From: a virus
Length of the DNA: 64,000 nucleotides
IMG/VR virus record: IMGVR_UViG_3300022752_002410
Location: 1-64,000 of that record
Strand: one strand, 5' to 3'
Shown: positions 18,092 through 57,471 of the stretch, one piece after another
Layout of the letters: the number at the start of each line of letters is the position of its first letter
Position numbering within the stretch: position 1 is the first letter of the stretch
Made by a program: the position numbers and the translations under genes
Notes under the pieces: model-generated
The model's input: only the letters and a program-made list of their open reading frames with translations
The model's database searches: none
Told to the model about the DNA's origin: nothing

Positions 18092-18387
18092 TGACTATGA
18101 GAATAGTTAATATCGGTGTAGCAGATAAAGGTAATGGTGATCCTTTACGCACAGCGTTTGATAAAATAAACAAAAATTTTGAAGATCTTAATAATGATTT
18201 TGTCAACCTAACAGCGACAGTAAGTAACATCAGTACCACTGCTAGCCTTACAGAATTTGATTTTGGCCAAATCAAACTAAATGCTGTATATGATCCGTTA
18301 CAATTATTATTTTATACAGCTAATATTGATTTAGGTCAAATCAGTGAACCACCTTTGATTGACTATGATGCAGGTGATTTTGAGTAA
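18091..18387 (+). CDS. Short fibre-associated protein
   Basis: This 98-residue protein shares the start module VNIGVADKGNGDPLRTAFDK, then INKNFEDL, with the giant fibre. Its end (FDFGQIKLNA to IDYDAGDFE) resembles the end of the next gene product. It starts at ATG 18091 in a TAATG overlap with the fibre stop. It may be an attachment or tip subunit. Confidence 0.65.
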   Translation: MTMRIVNIGVADKGNGDPLRTAFDKINKNFEDLNNDFVNLTATVSNISTTASLTEFDFGQIKLNAVYDPLQLLFYTANIDLGQISEPPLIDYDAGDFE

Positions 18388-51741: not shown

Positions 51742-51999
51742 ATGTCAACAAGAATTTACGGGCCTGAAGAAAAGGCTAAACTAGAAAAACTTATTAACGA
51801 AGGCAGTACTGTACTACGTGAAATCCAAGACCTACAAGAGGGTTTGAAAGATACAGTAAGAGCAGTGGCCGAGGAACTAAATATAAAGACCAGCATTATT
51901 AATCGTGCTATCAAAATCGCTCATAAGGGTGATTGGAGCAACTATGATAATGATTGGAAAGAGGTTGAAGCTATTTTGGATATTACCAAAAAAATTTGA
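51742..51999 (+). CDS. dsbA: DsbA-like double-stranded DNA-binding protein
   Basis: This 85-residue protein (MSTRIYGPEEKAKLEKLINE, with LKDTVRAVAEELNIK and AIKIAHKGDW) resembles cyanophage and T4 DsbA, a small dsDNA-binding protein linked to late transcription. Not the disulfide isomerase of the same symbol. Confidence 0.75.
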   Translation: MSTRIYGPEEKAKLEKLINEGSTVLREIQDLQEGLKDTVRAVAEELNIKTSIINRAIKIAHKGDWSNYDNDWKEVEAILDITKKI

Positions 52000-52214
52000 T
52001 GCTTACTGCGTTTGAATGGCTATGTTCAATAGTATTGCTAGCAGGTGTAGCATTAACCAGTTTCAATATTTTTCCTTTAAATCTTTGGGTATTATTTTTT
52101 GGAAACTTAGGATGGGTAATATTAGGTTGGATATGGCGTAAATGGAGTTTGATAGCCATGCAGGTAGTTATTACTTTAATCTATGTTGTAGGCATAATTA
52201 AAGTATATTGGTAA
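51999..52214 (+). CDS. Small membrane protein
   Basis: This 71-residue protein is almost wholly hydrophobic, with two to three membrane segments (WLCSIVLLAGVALTSF, LWVLFFGNLGWVILGW, VVITLIYVVGIIKVYW). It starts at TGATG after the dsbA-like gene. Similar small genes sit near gp43 in other aquatic T4-like phages. Function unknown. Confidence 0.6.
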   Translation: MLTAFEWLCSIVLLAGVALTSFNIFPLNLWVLFFGNLGWVILGWIWRKWSLIAMQVVITLIYVVGIIKVYW

Positions 52215-52219
52215 GGTTG

Positions 52220-52271
52220 GCGAGCCATAAGTCGCAAGTTTGGTATTTGTGAGCCTAAAATCACATAGGAG
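52220..52271 (+). promoter_or_regulatory. Tandem translational-operator hairpins before gp43
   Basis: Hairpin 1: GCGA (52220-52223), loop GCCATAAG, TCGC (52232-52235). Hairpin 2: TGTGA (52248-52252), loop GCCTAAAA, TCACA (52261-52265), one base before the Shine-Dalgarno AGGAG (52267-52271). The T4 gp43 operator also has a 5-bp stem with 8-base loop directly before its ribosome site, bound by gp43 itself. Confidence 0.65.
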
Positions 52272-52277
52272 ATTATT

Positions 52278-54947
52278 ATGTATGTCGATGCTTATTTCGA
52301 CCGAGACAATGATATTGTCAAGGTTGTGGAACGTGACCGCAAGGGTCAACGTGTTTTTAAAGAATACCCAGCTAAGTTTGTATTTTACTACGACGATGCC
52401 AAGGGAAAATATACCAGTATATATGGAACACCAGTAAGTAGAACAATTTGTAAAACACAAAAGGATTTCCATAAAGAACTAAAAATAAATTCAAACAAAC
52501 GTATCTACGAAGCTGATATTAATCAAATCTTTGTTTGCTTGAGTGAACACTACTTAAATGATGAAGCCCCAAAACTCAATGTAGTATTTTTTGACATTGA
52601 AGTAGACTTTGACCCAGAACGTGGATATGCATCACCAGATGACGCCTTTATGCCAATCACTGCTATTAGCGTACATTTACAATGGCTAAACACACTGGTC
52701 ACATTGGCAGTACCGCCTAAAACATTGAGCCTAAGTGAGGCAGAAGAACTTGTAGCTAAGTTTCCTAACACACAACTTTTTGAAAGTGAAGCAGAAATGC
52801 TGGACACTTTCTTACATTTGATTGAAGATGCTGATGTTATTACAGGTTGGAACAGTGAGGGCTATGATATTCCCTACACTGTGAATCGTGTGACTAAAGC
52901 ATTGAGTAAAGATGATACACGCAGATTTTGTCTTTGGAACCACTATCCTAAAAGGAGGGAATATGAAAAATTTGGCAAAGCAGCCACGACCTATGACTTG
53001 GTGGGACGAGTACACCTCGACAGCCTCGAACTATACCGTAGGTACACCTATGAAGAAAGGCACACCTACAGGTTGGACGCTATCGGCGAAATGGAAATCG
53101 GCGAACGTAAAACAGTCTATGAAGGTACATTAGACCAACTGTACAACAATGACTTTGCCACGTTCATTGAATATAATAGACAGGACGTGGCCTTGTTAGA
53201 TAAACTAGATCGTAAGTTAAGATTTATTGATCTGGCTAATACACTGGCACATGAAAATACTGTACTACTACAGACTACAATGGGTGCTGTAGCAGTCACA
53301 GAACAGGCTATTATCAATGAGGCACATCGTAGAGGACTGGTAGTTCCTAATCGTACTAAAAAGGCTGAGCGTGATGATGGCAGTGCCGCAGGTGCTTATG
53401 TTGCTCATCCCAAAGAAGGATTACATGATTGGATAGGCAGCGTGGATATTAACAGTCTATATCCCAGTGCTATTCGTGCTTTAAACATGGGTCCAGAAAC
53501 TATTGTTGGTCAATTACGTCAAACAATGACTGATACATATATGCAAGAACAAATGGCCAAGGGCAAAAGTTTTGCAGGTAGCTGGGAGGGACGCTTTGGC
53601 AGTATGGAATACGAAGCAGTAATGAATAAGGAAATTGGCACGGAAATAACTATCGACTGGGAAGAAGGCGGACATGATATAGTAAGTGCCGCTGAAGCAT
53701 ATAAACTAATCTTTGATAGTAATCAATCATGGATGTTAAGTGCTAATGGTACAATCTTTACCTATGAGAAAGAAGGTGTTATTCCAGGCTTGTTAGAACG
53801 TTGGTATAAAGAACGTAAAGAGATGCAGGCTAAATTAAAGGATGCTATTAATGCTGGAAATAAAATTGAAGAGGAATACTGGGACAAACGACAGTTGGTT
53901 AAGAAAATTAACCTCAACAGTCTTTATGGTGCTATTCTTAATCCTGGCTGTAGGTTTTTTGATAAACGCATTGGACAAAGTACTACTCTTAGTGGTAGGC
54001 AAATTACCAAGCACATGGCTGCTAAGATAAACGAAGTAATCACAGGAGATTATGATCACGTTGGTCGTAGCATAATTTATGGTGATACTGATAGTGCCTA
54101 TTTTAGTGCTCATCGTACATTGAAGAAAGAAATAGATAAAGGCACTATTCCTTGGACTAAGGAAACTATCATACAATTATATGATGGAGTAGCAGAAGAA
54201 GTAAACAAATCATTCCCAGACTTTATGACACAGGCTTTTCATTGTCCTAAAAGCAGAGGTGCAGTGATTAAAGCAGGACGTGAACTTGTAGCCAGTAAGG
54301 GATTGTTTATTACCAAAAAGCGTTATAGCGTCCTGTACTATGATAAAGAAGGTAAACGTCAAGATATAGAAGATAAACCTGGCAAAATTAAGGCCATGGG
54401 CTTGGATCTAAAGCGCAGTGATACTCCAGAATTTATACAGGACTTTTTAAGTCAAGTATTAGAGATGGTCTTGACTGGCAATGATGAAAAAACTGTATTA
54501 GACTATATAAGTGATTTTAGAATTAATTTTAAGTCTAGACCAGGTTGGGAAAAAGGTAGTCCTCGTCGTGCTAATAACATCACTGACTATGAAGAAAAAG
54601 AACGTAAACAAGGCAAAGCTAATATGCCAGGACATGTAAGAGCTAGTATTAATTGGAATACTCTTAAACGTATGCACGGTGACAAATACTCAATGGGTAT
54701 TGTTGATGGTATGAAGGTGGTCGTATGCAAATTAAAGCCTAACCCATTAGGCTATACTAGTGTAGCATACCCAGTAGATGAGTTAAGGTTACCACAATGG
54801 TTTAAAGACTTGCCCTTTGATCATGCTGCCATGGAAGACACTATTATAGATAATAAACTAGAAAATCTTATTGGTGTATTGAAATGGAGCATAATAAACA
54901 CACAAGAATCAAATACATTTAATAAATTATTTGAATTTGAAGCTTGA
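52278..54947 (+). CDS. Family B DNA polymerase (gp43-like)
   Basis: This 889-residue replicative polymerase is similar in length to T4 gp43 (898). Exonuclease motifs: FFDIEVDF (Asp106, Glu108), ITGWNSEGYDIPY and EYNRQDVALL. Polymerase motifs: A, DINSLYPSAI (from residue 390); B, KKINLNSLYGA; C, YGDTDSA (601-607). Proofreading and synthesis centres both look intact. It works with the gp45 and gp44 homologues. Confidence 0.97.
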   Translation: MYVDAYFDRDNDIVKVVERDRKGQRVFKEYPAKFVFYYDDAKGKYTSIYGTPVSRTICKTQKDFHKELKINSNKRIYEADINQIFVCLSEHYLNDEAPKLNVVFFDIEVDFDPERGYASPDDAFMPITAISVHLQWLNTLVTLAVPPKTLSLSEAEELVAKFPNTQLFESEAEMLDTFLHLIEDADVITGWNSEGYDIPYTVNRVTKALSKDDTRRFCLWNHYPKRREYEKFGKAATTYDLVGRVHLDSLELYRRYTYEERHTYRLDAIGEMEIGERKTVYEGTLDQLYNNDFATFIEYNRQDVALLDKLDRKLRFIDLANTLAHENTVLLQTTMGAVAVTEQAIINEAHRRGLVVPNRTKKAERDDGSAAGAYVAHPKEGLHDWIGSVDINSLYPSAIRALNMGPETIVGQLRQTMTDTYMQEQMAKGKSFAGSWEGRFGSMEYEAVMNKEIGTEITIDWEEGGHDIVSAAEAYKLIFDSNQSWMLSANGTIFTYEKEGVIPGLLERWYKERKEMQAKLKDAINAGNKIEEEYWDKRQLVKKINLNSLYGAILNPGCRFFDKRIGQSTTLSGRQITKHMAAKINEVITGDYDHVGRSIIYGDTDSAYFSAHRTLKKEIDKGTIPWTKETIIQLYDGVAEEVNKSFPDFMTQAFHCPKSRGAVIKAGRELVASKGLFITKKRYSVLYYDKEGKRQDIEDKPGKIKAMGLDLKRSDTPEFIQDFLSQVLEMVLTGNDEKTVLDYISDFRINFKSRPGWEKGSPRRANNITDYEEKERKQGKANMPGHVRASINWNTLKRMHGDKYSMGIVDGMKVVVCKLKPNPLGYTSVAYPVDELRLPQWFKDLPFDHAAMEDTIIDNKLENLIGVLKWSIINTQESNTFNKLFEFEA

Positions 54948-54989: not shown

Positions 54990-55724
54990 ATGATTAAAGA
55001 TATATTAACAGACATTGTAGCACATACACACAGCTTAGGGTTCCTACCATTAGTAAAAATTACTAATGAAGATGATTGCTCAGTAATTGAAAGTATGGCA
55101 GAAGATCGTAGTGTTATCCTTAGTGCTAAAACACACAACCCAGTAGATTCATTCGTGGGTACATTTGGTATGCCAGATTTAGACAAACTTAACCTATTAC
55201 TAAAAAGTCCAGAATATAAAGAAAACGCTACTATTGATGTAGTAGTCAACAATCGTAATGGGGAGGAAATCCCTACAGGTCTAAGATTTGAAAATGAGGA
55301 CAAGGACTTTGTCAATGATTTTAGATTTATGAGCACACAACTTATTAATGAAAAACTTAAAAGTGTTAAGTTTAAAGGCTCAAGTTGGAACATAGAATTT
55401 ACTCCTAGCATTAGCAGCACTCAAAGACTTAAATTGCAGGCGCAAGTTCATAATGAAGTAAGTTTTTTCAAAGTCAAAGTAGAAAATAAGAATTTGATGT
55501 TTAGTTTTGGAGATGCAAGTACACACGCAGGTGAGTTTATCTTTCAACCACAAGTAGAAGGAAAATTAAAACAGGAATGGACTTGGCCAATACAGCAAGT
55601 ATTAAGCATCCTAAACCTAAACGGTGACATGACTATGAAGATCAGTGACCAAGGTGCTATGATGATTGTTGTAGATAGCGGTATTGCAGAATACCAATAT
55701 ATCCTACCAGCACAAACAAAATGA
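54990..55724 (+). CDS. Sliding clamp (gp45-like)
   Basis: This 244-residue protein resembles T4 gp45 (228 residues): DILTDIVAHTHSLGFLPLVK at the start, ATIDVVVNNRNGEEI in the middle and MTMKISDQGAMMIVVDSG near the end. It forms a trimeric ring for polymerase and late transcription. Immediately follows gp43. Confidence 0.85.
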   Translation: MIKDILTDIVAHTHSLGFLPLVKITNEDDCSVIESMAEDRSVILSAKTHNPVDSFVGTFGMPDLDKLNLLLKSPEYKENATIDVVVNNRNGEEIPTGLRFENEDKDFVNDFRFMSTQLINEKLKSVKFKGSSWNIEFTPSISSTQRLKLQAQVHNEVSFFKVKVENKNLMFSFGDASTHAGEFIFQPQVEGKLKQEWTWPIQQVLSILNLNGDMTMKISDQGAMMIVVDSGIAEYQYILPAQTK

Positions 55725-55918
55725 ACCCAGAAATACAAAGTAAAGTACAAGACCTAAAGTCTACTATACAAAATCTAAATAATATACTTGGAGATTTACA
55801 TAATAGTAATGTTTTGGTTCATTTGAGTATAGATAAAAATAGTGCTATTGATCCTACACAGATTAGACTTTTACTCTGTATGCAGCACATAGATTACCTA
55901 AAAGAAGAAAACAAATGA
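55721..55918 (+). CDS. Small hypothetical protein
   Basis: This 65-residue protein has a helical N-terminus (IQSKVQDLKSTIQNLNNIL) and no recognised family. ATGA overlaps on both sides place it in the clamp-dpdA transcript. Confidence 0.5.
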   Translation: MNPEIQSKVQDLKSTIQNLNNILGDLHNSNVLVHLSIDKNSAIDPTQIRLLLCMQHIDYLKEENK

Positions 55919-57471
55919 ATCGAAACCTTTCTAATACCCAACTAGACTACGCTAAGTTTTTGCCAGCGACCAGCACCTTTTATGCTACCTTTATAGGCAA
56001 ACAGCGTTATATAAACTATGTAGATCCCGCAAGGATTCCTCCTAGTTTTACTAATGGTATGGAAAGTTTGAACTTTCTTGATCCAGTAAAAGGTCAATTT
56101 TACTATGAATGGTGCTTGTATAGTGCTGGACATGCTAGTCTTGATCTAAGCAAACCCTGCTGGAAAGAGGATATGTTTAGAAATCGTAATCGCTCAAATA
56201 GCTTTGTACTTGGCGATAGCGGCGGATTCCAGATTGGTAAAGGTCGCTGGGAAGGTGACTGGAAAGACCCTAACTGTCCTAAGGCCAGTAAAAAACGCAA
56301 ACAGGTTCTGGAATGGATGGACACATTGATGGACTATGGCATGATTCTTGATATTCCTAGTTGGGTAGGACGTATTAAAGAGAATGCTCAAAAAACTGGC
56401 ATTAGGAATTTTTCAGAAGCAGTAGCAGGTACACATATTAACAACGAATACTTTATACGTAATCGTAACGGTAACTGTAAATTTCTTAACGTACTACAAG
56501 GTGAAAATCATACCCAAGCTGATCTTTGGTATAATCAAATGAAAAAGTACAGTGATCCCAAACAATACCCTAACGAACATTTTAATGGATGGGGTATGGG
56601 TGGACAAAATATGTGTGACATTAGTCTTGTACTGCGTAGACTAGTAGAACTAAGATTTGATAATTTATTAGAACCAGGCTTACACGACTGGATGCACTTT
56701 TTAGGCACAAGTAAATTAGAATGGGCCATACTTATGACTGATATACAACGTGCAGTTCGTAAATATCATAATCCAAATTTCACCATAAGTTTTGACTGTG
56801 CTAGTCCATTCTTAGCTACAGCAAATGGACAAATATATTATCAAACTGAGACTATAGATCGTAGCAAATGGACCTATAGGATGAGTGCTGGGTTAGATGA
56901 TAAGAAATATAAACATGACACAAGACTATATCGTGATGCGGTGGTAGCAGATGGAAAATTACCTTTGTTTGAAAATAGCCCTGTAATGGATCAAATCAAA
57001 ACTAACGATATTTGTGTATATGGTCCAGGTGACTTAAACAAGTTTGGCAAAAGCAATAAGACCAGCTGGGACAGTTTTAGCTATGGTATTATGATGGCAC
57101 ATAATATTTGGCATCATATTAGTGCTGTACAAGAAGCTAATCGTCAATACGATTTAGGTAACTGTCCAAAAATGCTAGTAGCAGAAAATTTTAAAAGAGT
57201 TTATTTTAGAGATATTGTAAATGCTATTTTTGCCAGCACTAACAAAGGAGTTGCATTAGATATACTTGAAGATCATGATAGTTTCTTTAAACAAATTATA
57301 GGTACAAGAGGTGCAAGTGGTAAAAATGCAACAAATGCTTTCTCTAAATTTGAGGAACTGTTTGACATCATAGAGGAAGATAGTGTAGAATTAGATGAGG
57401 AAGAATTTACAGACACCCAAATTGATCGTTTAGAAGAACTTGAATTGGAAACTGAAGATGACACTGCCTGA
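55915..57471 (+). CDS. dpdA: DpdA-like DNA 7-deazaguanine transglycosylase (TGT fold)
   Basis: This 518-residue protein has the two TGT active-site motifs: LGDSGGFQIG with Asp101 and ISFDCASPF with Asp294 as nucleophile. NVLQGENHTQADLW and FLGTSKLEW match the substrate and glycine-loop regions. tRNA-type TGTs are about 375 residues with a CxCxxC zinc site; that site is absent and the length fits the DpdA family, which swaps guanine for preQ0-type bases in DNA. QueD at 6049 supplies precursor. The acidic tail (57420-57470) is unusual. Confidence 0.75.
   Translation: MNRNLSNTQLDYAKFLPATSTFYATFIGKQRYINYVDPARIPPSFTNGMESLNFLDPVKGQFYYEWCLYSAGHASLDLSKPCWKEDMFRNRNRSNSFVLGDSGGFQIGKGRWEGDWKDPNCPKASKKRKQVLEWMDTLMDYGMILDIPSWVGRIKENAQKTGIRNFSEAVAGTHINNEYFIRNRNGNCKFLNVLQGENHTQADLWYNQMKKYSDPKQYPNEHFNGWGMGGQNMCDISLVLRRLVELRFDNLLEPGLHDWMHFLGTSKLEWAILMTDIQRAVRKYHNPNFTISFDCASPFLATANGQIYYQTETIDRSKWTYRMSAGLDDKKYKHDTRLYRDAVVADGKLPLFENSPVMDQIKTNDICVYGPGDLNKFGKSNKTSWDSFSYGIMMAHNIWHHISAVQEANRQYDLGNCPKMLVAENFKRVYFRDIVNAIFASTNKGVALDILEDHDSFFKQIIGTRGASGKNATNAFSKFEELFDIIEEDSVELDEEEFTDTQIDRLEELELETEDDTA

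What the first reader, a model, noticed from the sequence alone, without database searches (positions are those of the whole stretch)
52220..52271. Tandem hairpins that copy the gp43 operator geometry
Two hairpins with 8-base loops GCCATAAG and GCCTAAAA (related sequence) stand before gp43. The second has a 5-bp stem directly before the ribosome site. T4 gp43 represses its own translation by binding a 5-bp, 8-base-loop hairpin at the same position. Different loop sequence and duplication suggest a co-evolved operator with two binding sites.
Basis: partly seen in the sequence, partly recalled or inferred. Interest (0 to 1): 0.7.

Follow-up and report, generated by a model that had tools for sequence, protein, structure and literature searches.

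The report
Tandem RNA pseudoknots controlling phage polymerase
Just before its DNA-polymerase gene, an uncultured, T4-related (probably jumbo) phage carries two small knotted RNA folds whose base pairs are preserved by matching mutations across hundreds of related phages; they are most likely a switch by which the polymerase limits its own production, built differently from the known switch of phage T4.

Summary
The two hairpins are real: 4-bp stem/GCCAUAAG loop (52220-52235) and 5-bp stem/GCCUAAAA loop (52248-52265), directly before the Shine-Dalgarno of a T4-gp43-like family B DNA polymerase (52278-54947). All 80 nearest relatives keep both. Stems covary (200 of 200 cells paired, 83 two-sided changes, 0/500 shuffles). 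Each hairpin is half of an H-type pseudoknot: a GGU just upstream pairs with the loop's GCC. Elsewhere loop GCC always comes with upstream GGY (164/164 unique leaders) and loop GCU with AGY (46/46), with four independent compensated switches on the polymerase tree. The element occurs only in front of this gene: 238 of 238 hits read from two collection scans; in four of them an extra gene sits between element and polymerase. A 400-kb relative has it nowhere else; its gp32 leader lacks it. T4's operator is a plain hairpin with another loop, so the element is analogous in place and size, not a copy. Most likely it is an autogenous translational operator for the polymerase, duplicated in this clade. 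RNA structure and gene specificity are well supported; binding by gp43 is inferred. No Rfam match and no paper found in the searched library.

The parts
52215..52235 (+). Pseudoknot unit 1: S1a GGU 52215-52217; L1 52218-52219; S2a GCGA 52220-52223; S1b GCC 52224-52226; L3 AUAAG 52227-52231; S2b UCGC 52232-52235
   Evidence: sequence; conserved in all 80 nearest loci; unit counts; GGY always with GCC
52242..52265 (+). Pseudoknot unit 2: S1a GGU 52242-52244; L1 AUU 52245-52247; S2a UGUGA 52248-52252; S1b GCC 52253-52255; L3 UAAAA 52256-52260; S2b UCACA 52261-52265
   Evidence: sequence; covariance-model match 26.3 bits (the model includes this clade); S2 covariation; S1/S2 counts
52236..52241 (+). 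spacer between the units; loop-to-loop distance held at 28-30 nt in clade A
52268..52271 (+). Shine-Dalgarno GGAG, 2 nt after S2b of unit 2; in sister clade B the last stem strand overlaps it
   Evidence: sequence
52278..54947 (+). T4-gp43-like family B DNA polymerase (889 aa), the regulated gene
   Evidence: Pfam PF00136 E 4.7e-37 and PF03104; PHROG 262 E 4e-198; T4-like DNA polymerase chains (1clq, 3kd1 etc.) are the best solved-structure matches, E about 6e-58
51996..52214 (+). upstream ORF (DUF6552, small hydrophobic protein); its stop codon 52212-52214 abuts unit 1

Best explanation
The leader of the polymerase mRNA holds two small H-type pseudoknots (S1 GGU:GCC, 3 bp; S2 4-5 bp; L3 of five nucleotides with a conserved AA). 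They form a cis-acting translational operator. Shown by comparison: both helices, the conserved AA, the fixed spacing, exclusive association with this gene, and the position next to or overlapping the ribosome site. Inferred: polymerase not engaged on DNA binds the pseudoknots, recognising the fold and the AA-containing L3; this stabilises folds that are weak alone and occludes the Shine-Dalgarno, so polymerase synthesis falls when the enzyme is in excess. In the window's clade a second unit was added; two units about 29 nt apart would allow two polymerases to bind or sharpen the response.
For: Both hairpins in all 80 nearest relatives. S2: 200/200 cells paired, 83 two-sided changes, 0/500 shuffles. 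S1: loop GCC with upstream GGY 164/164 and loop GCU with AGY 46/46, units chosen without requiring S1; S1 outer pair among the four strongest of 136 column pairs by mutual information, the other three being S2; four independent switches on a 275-row polymerase tree, partner changed in 4 of 4. The 400-kb relative has only the two leader sites, and its gp32 gene lacks the element. Where a gene was inserted, the element lies 173-1039 nt upstream in further loci, with 0 such matches in 296 kb of control sequence. Gp43 of T4, RB69 and RB49 binds a leader hairpin of the same place and size, with loop AC/AA bases important (PMC3014915).
Against: No binding or expression data exist for any member. Relatives outside clades A-C that were read, including cultured Phosso, Atu_ph07, 121Q, GAP32, RaK2 and Munch, lack it, so autoregulation by this element is not general in the family. 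Some relatives inside clades B/C have lost it; several look leaderless. The free-energy model does not predict the conserved fold as the minimum for the window leader. S1 is only 3 bp. Four independent S1 switches are too few for significance alone (sign test p 0.125).
Confidence: 0.66

Rival explanations
1. The pseudoknots bind another factor (phage SSB/gp32, a RegA-like repressor, a host protein or an unknown phage protein) that controls polymerase translation.
For: T4 gp32 binds a pseudoknot in its own leader (PMC535899), so an SSB reading pseudoknots has precedent; the relative encodes a gp32.
Against: The gp32 leader of the 400-kb relative lacks the element, whereas T4 gp32 regulates its own message; no downstream UUAAA repeats in the window leader; no RegA-family match found (weak negative because nothing rang in controls). 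A general regulator would be expected at more than one gene.
Confidence: 0.16
2. A ligand-sensing riboswitch: tandem miniature pseudoknot aptamers (for example for a nucleotide or deazapurine precursor) controlling polymerase synthesis.
For: Pseudoknots next to a Shine-Dalgarno are a common riboswitch design; tandem units occur in some riboswitches (own knowledge); a protein with a TGT-like GDSGGFQIG motif lies a few ORFs downstream of the polymerase (55915-57471).
Against: Only the AA of L3 is invariant outside the helices in the units counted, very few fixed unpaired bases for a small-molecule pocket; no Rfam riboswitch match, best any-family E 0.28; one gene only.
Confidence: 0.07
3. A ligand-free structural element: it tunes basal initiation, protects the mRNA or processes it, without any sensing.
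For: Direct contact or overlap with the Shine-Dalgarno would dampen initiation by itself.
Against: Loop residues AA and, in unit 1 and clade B, AY before them are kept while stem letters change freely, which points to recognition; one gene only; precise tandem spacing.
Confidence: 0.1
4. Chance hairpins with no function.
For: Single-sequence folding z-scores of only -1.2 to -1.8.
Against: Covariation of both helices across hundreds of loci.
Confidence: 0.01

Closest known systems
T4 / RB69 / RB49 gp43 translational operator
   Same: Same gene; leader element a few nt before the Shine-Dalgarno (RB69: 2 nt, as here); 4-5 bp stem with 8-nt loop (T4 18 nt, RB69 16 nt; here 18 and 16); A-rich loop core (UAAC / UAAA; here often UAAA or UAAG).
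   Different: Here each unit is a pseudoknot; loop consensus GCCNNAAN or GCUNNAAN; duplicated in one clade; single copy overlapping the Shine-Dalgarno in clade B.
T4 / RB69 gene 32 operator
   Same: Leader pseudoknot of a replication protein that acts as autogenous translational repressor.
   Different: Different gene; no downstream UUAAA repeats here; small helices (3 and 4-5 bp) and two tandem units.
preQ1-I and other small H-type pseudoknot riboswitches
   Same: Compact pseudoknot close to the ribosome site.
   Different: No Rfam match; almost no conserved unpaired bases; tied to one protein gene.

Membership tests
T4/RB69-type gp43 translational operator | lies in the leader of a gp43-type family B polymerase next to the Shine-Dalgarno | tested here: met
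   T4 and RB69 leaders read
T4/RB69-type gp43 translational operator | 4-5 bp stem closing an 8-nt loop | tested here: met
   (some units have a one-nt bulge or a 9-nt loop)
T4/RB69-type gp43 translational operator | loop AAUAACUC / core UAAC (RB49 UAAA) | tested here: not met
   GCC/GCU at loop positions 1-3; only the AA is shared
T4/RB69-type gp43 translational operator | simple hairpin, no pseudoknot | tested here: not met
   S1 covariation; T4 side from PMC3014915
T4/RB69-type gp43 translational operator | bound by its own polymerase with repression of translation | not testable with these tools
   needs protein-RNA binding and translation assays
T4 gene 32 pseudoknot operator | located before gene 32 | tested here: not met
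   located before polymerase; gp32 leader of the 400-kb relative lacks it
T4 gene 32 pseudoknot operator | H-type pseudoknot 5' of the ribosome site | tested here: met
T4 gene 32 pseudoknot operator | UUAAA/UAAA repeats between pseudoknot and start | tested here: not met
   UAGGAGAUUAUU only between unit 2 and AUG
any Rfam 15 family | score at or above the curated threshold | tested here: not met
   0 matches; best weak match Mu-gpT-DE 15.1 bits against a cut-off of 49

The most novel reading that the evidence does not exclude
The tandem pseudoknots sense something other than the polymerase itself (a nucleotide or modified-base precursor, or a replication-fork factor), a new class of miniature tandem RNA sensor that sets polymerase dosage in these phages.
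Probability: 0.1. Interest if true: 0.85.

Novelty: new variant of a known kind. Interest (0 to 1): 0.62.

Why it matters
It would show that the classic phage principle, a replication polymerase repressing its own mRNA, reappears in a large group of uncultured T4-related phages with a different RNA fold. It also provides over 200 natural operator variants with mapped base pairs, three clade architectures (tandem, single, lost), and compensated pair switches, so operator recognition by a DNA polymerase, for which no RNA complex structure had been solved by the 2010 review, becomes directly testable.

Tried and rejected
(1) Single-sequence folding as evidence: not significant. (2) Alternative cross-unit helix (unit 1 S2b with unit 2 S2a) that the energy model favours in the window: possible in only 15 of 137 clade-A leaders, so not the conserved structure. 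(3) Rfam: no match. (4) Minus-strand model hit at 18255-18277: antisense inside a forward ORF in the tail-fibre-like region and with a mismatched S1; chance. (5) Apparent exceptions to gene specificity (L183, L505, L553, L559): each has an extra gene between the element and the polymerase. (6) gp32 as target: its leader lacks the element. (7) Element in bacterial genomes: no match to the tandem pattern. (8) Specificity inside whole B/C-type genomes could not be judged with the model, because it scores those leaders poorly (best E 0.5-3).

Full report
OBSERVATION. The window (part of a 66.6-kb IMG/VR virus record) carries at 52278-54947 an 889-aa family B DNA polymerase related to T4/RB69 gp43 (Pfam DNA_pol_B and exo domains; PHROG 262 at E 4e-198; T4-like DNA polymerase chains, e.g. 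1clq, are the best solved-structure matches). The 63 bases between the upstream stop codon and its ATG read GGUUGGCGAGCCAUAAGUCGCAAGUUUGGUAUUUGUGAGCCUAAAAUCACAUAGGAGAUUAUU. By folding energy alone they are ordinary.

CONSERVATION AND STEM COVARIATION. A scan of IMG/VR gave 80 close polymerase loci (74-94% identity). Every one keeps both hairpins. Loops read GCCAYAAN (unit 1; L037 is an exception) and GCCNNAAN (unit 2) while stems differ: GCGA/UCGC, AGUGA/UCACU, GCAG/CUGC, GAUCA/UGAUC, UCCA/UGGA and others. On 43 diverse units the stem pairs in 200 of 200 cells, with 83 two-sided changes (shuffle mean 26.7, 0/500 as high) and a covariation score of 0.947 against at most 0.178 for slid partners.

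A SECOND HELIX: PSEUDOKNOTS. A GGU or GGC stands 1-4 nt upstream of the stem and can pair with the GCC that begins the loop. Further scans with more distant polymerases gave 449 leaders in all. In one clade the loop begins GCU, and there the upstream triplet is AGU or AGC. Taking hairpins without any requirement on the upstream bases, loop GCC goes with GGY in 164 of 164 unique leaders and loop GCU with AGY in 46 of 46. Of all 136 column pairs in 129 distinct unit sequences, the four with highest mutual information are the three S2 pairs and the S1 outer pair. On a 275-row polymerase tree the S1 pair switched four times and both sides changed together each time; four events alone give p 0.125, so the strength lies in the unbroken association. 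One leader shows AGU:ACU, a third solution. Caveats: the units were selected for S1 pairing and the short L1 was cut out, so the 100% for S1 is by construction; the two-sided GC-to-AU changes and one search are the evidence. The layout (S1 3 bp, L1 1-4 nt, S2 3-6 bp, L2 none, L3 five nt) is that of a small H-type pseudoknot. Covariation alone does not exclude that the S1 hairpin and the S2 hairpin form alternately rather than together; the pseudoknot is the simpler reading because the geometry allows both at once.

ARCHITECTURES. Clade A (window; polymerases of 69% identity or more) has two units with loop-to-loop spacing of 28-30 nt in 136 of 137 unique leaders; in a subset unit 1 has a one-nt bulge in S2, and a few unit-2 loops have nine bases. 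Clade B (about 63-67%) has one unit, GGC-NNN-CCG-GCCAUAAA-CGG-AG, whose last strand often overlaps the Shine-Dalgarno, preceded by a different covarying hairpin (UCG-stem-CAUG). Clade C has the same upstream hairpin and one AGY:GCU unit. Unit 1 of clade A resembles the clade-B unit (A then Y at loop positions 4-5, GGC or GGU), so unit 2 looks like the added copy; this is inference. More distant cultured phages have intrinsic-terminator-like hairpins or none.

SPECIFICITY. For the clade-B form 120 matches gave 117 directly before the polymerase and three with a gene between. Among leaders that seemed to lack the element, several had a match further upstream; one (L333, 47 nt) is a mis-set start codon, the others lie 173-1039 nt upstream, with zero matches in 296 kb of control sequence. 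In L553/L288 the inserted gene ends with UGA overlapping the polymerase's UUG start, so coupled translation could preserve control (sequence reading). A covariance model finds only the two leader sites in a 399.8-kb relative and, below E 0.05, only leader sites in seven other large clade-A contigs. The gp32 gene of the 400-kb relative has no such leader.

MECHANISM. T4, RB69 and RB49 gp43 bind a leader hairpin with an 8-nt loop near the ribosome site and repress their own translation when not engaged in replication; loop AC/AA bases matter (PMC3014915). Read directly, T4 is AGCCU-AAUAACUC-GGGCU and RB69 AGAC-AAUAACUC-GUCU with 2 nt to AGGA. The present element has the same gene, place and size, a conserved AA in the loop (rare exceptions such as L424), and one-gene specificity. 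The best reading is an autogenous polymerase operator in pseudoknot form. Shown: structure, gene specificity, position. Inferred: ligand identity, direction (repression), and a role for two sites. Since the stop codon of the upstream ORF abuts unit 1, ribosomes finishing that ORF would also disturb unit 1 (inference).

NOVELTY. No Rfam family and no paper in the searched open library describes it; most subscription papers are not held, including the key T4/RB69 operator paper, so prior description cannot be excluded. It is filed as a new variant of a known kind: works like the gp43 operator, not shown to be homologous to it.

Noticed in passing
L293-L362 and L373-L452, about 60-30 nt before the polymerase start: Clades B and C carry a second conserved leader hairpin upstream of the pseudoknot: (U)CG-[covarying stem such as GCUC/GAGC, GUUC/GAAC, GCCC/GGGC, GUUGG/CCAAC]-CAUG, absent in the window's clade, which has pseudoknot unit 1 instead.
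   Followed up: partly
L316, L317, L324, L366, L433, L438, L441 leaders: Several relatives without the element have a sigma-70-like promoter whose -10 box ends about 6-8 nt before the polymerase ATG, suggesting leaderless polymerase mRNAs.
   Followed up: no
L183, L505, L553, L559, L296, L299, L313, L404, L412: Extra genes (in L183 a homing-endonuclease-like ORF) are inserted between the pseudoknot leader and the polymerase; in L553 the inserted gene's stop overlaps the polymerase start (UUGA).
   Followed up: partly
window 55915-57471: 518-aa protein with a GDSGGFQIG motif typical of tRNA-guanine transglycosylases (DpdA-like DNA modification enzyme?), also downstream of the polymerase in L183; no Pfam or PHROG match.
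   Followed up: no
window 54990-55724: 244-aa protein directly after the polymerase, PHROG 12062 of unknown function; an ORF at about this place is annotated as sliding clamp in Sinorhizobium phage Phosso.
   Followed up: no
window 51742-51999: 85-aa protein upstream with a weak (below cut-off) match to phage DsbA transcriptional regulator (Pfam PF11126) and to PHROG 639.
   Followed up: no
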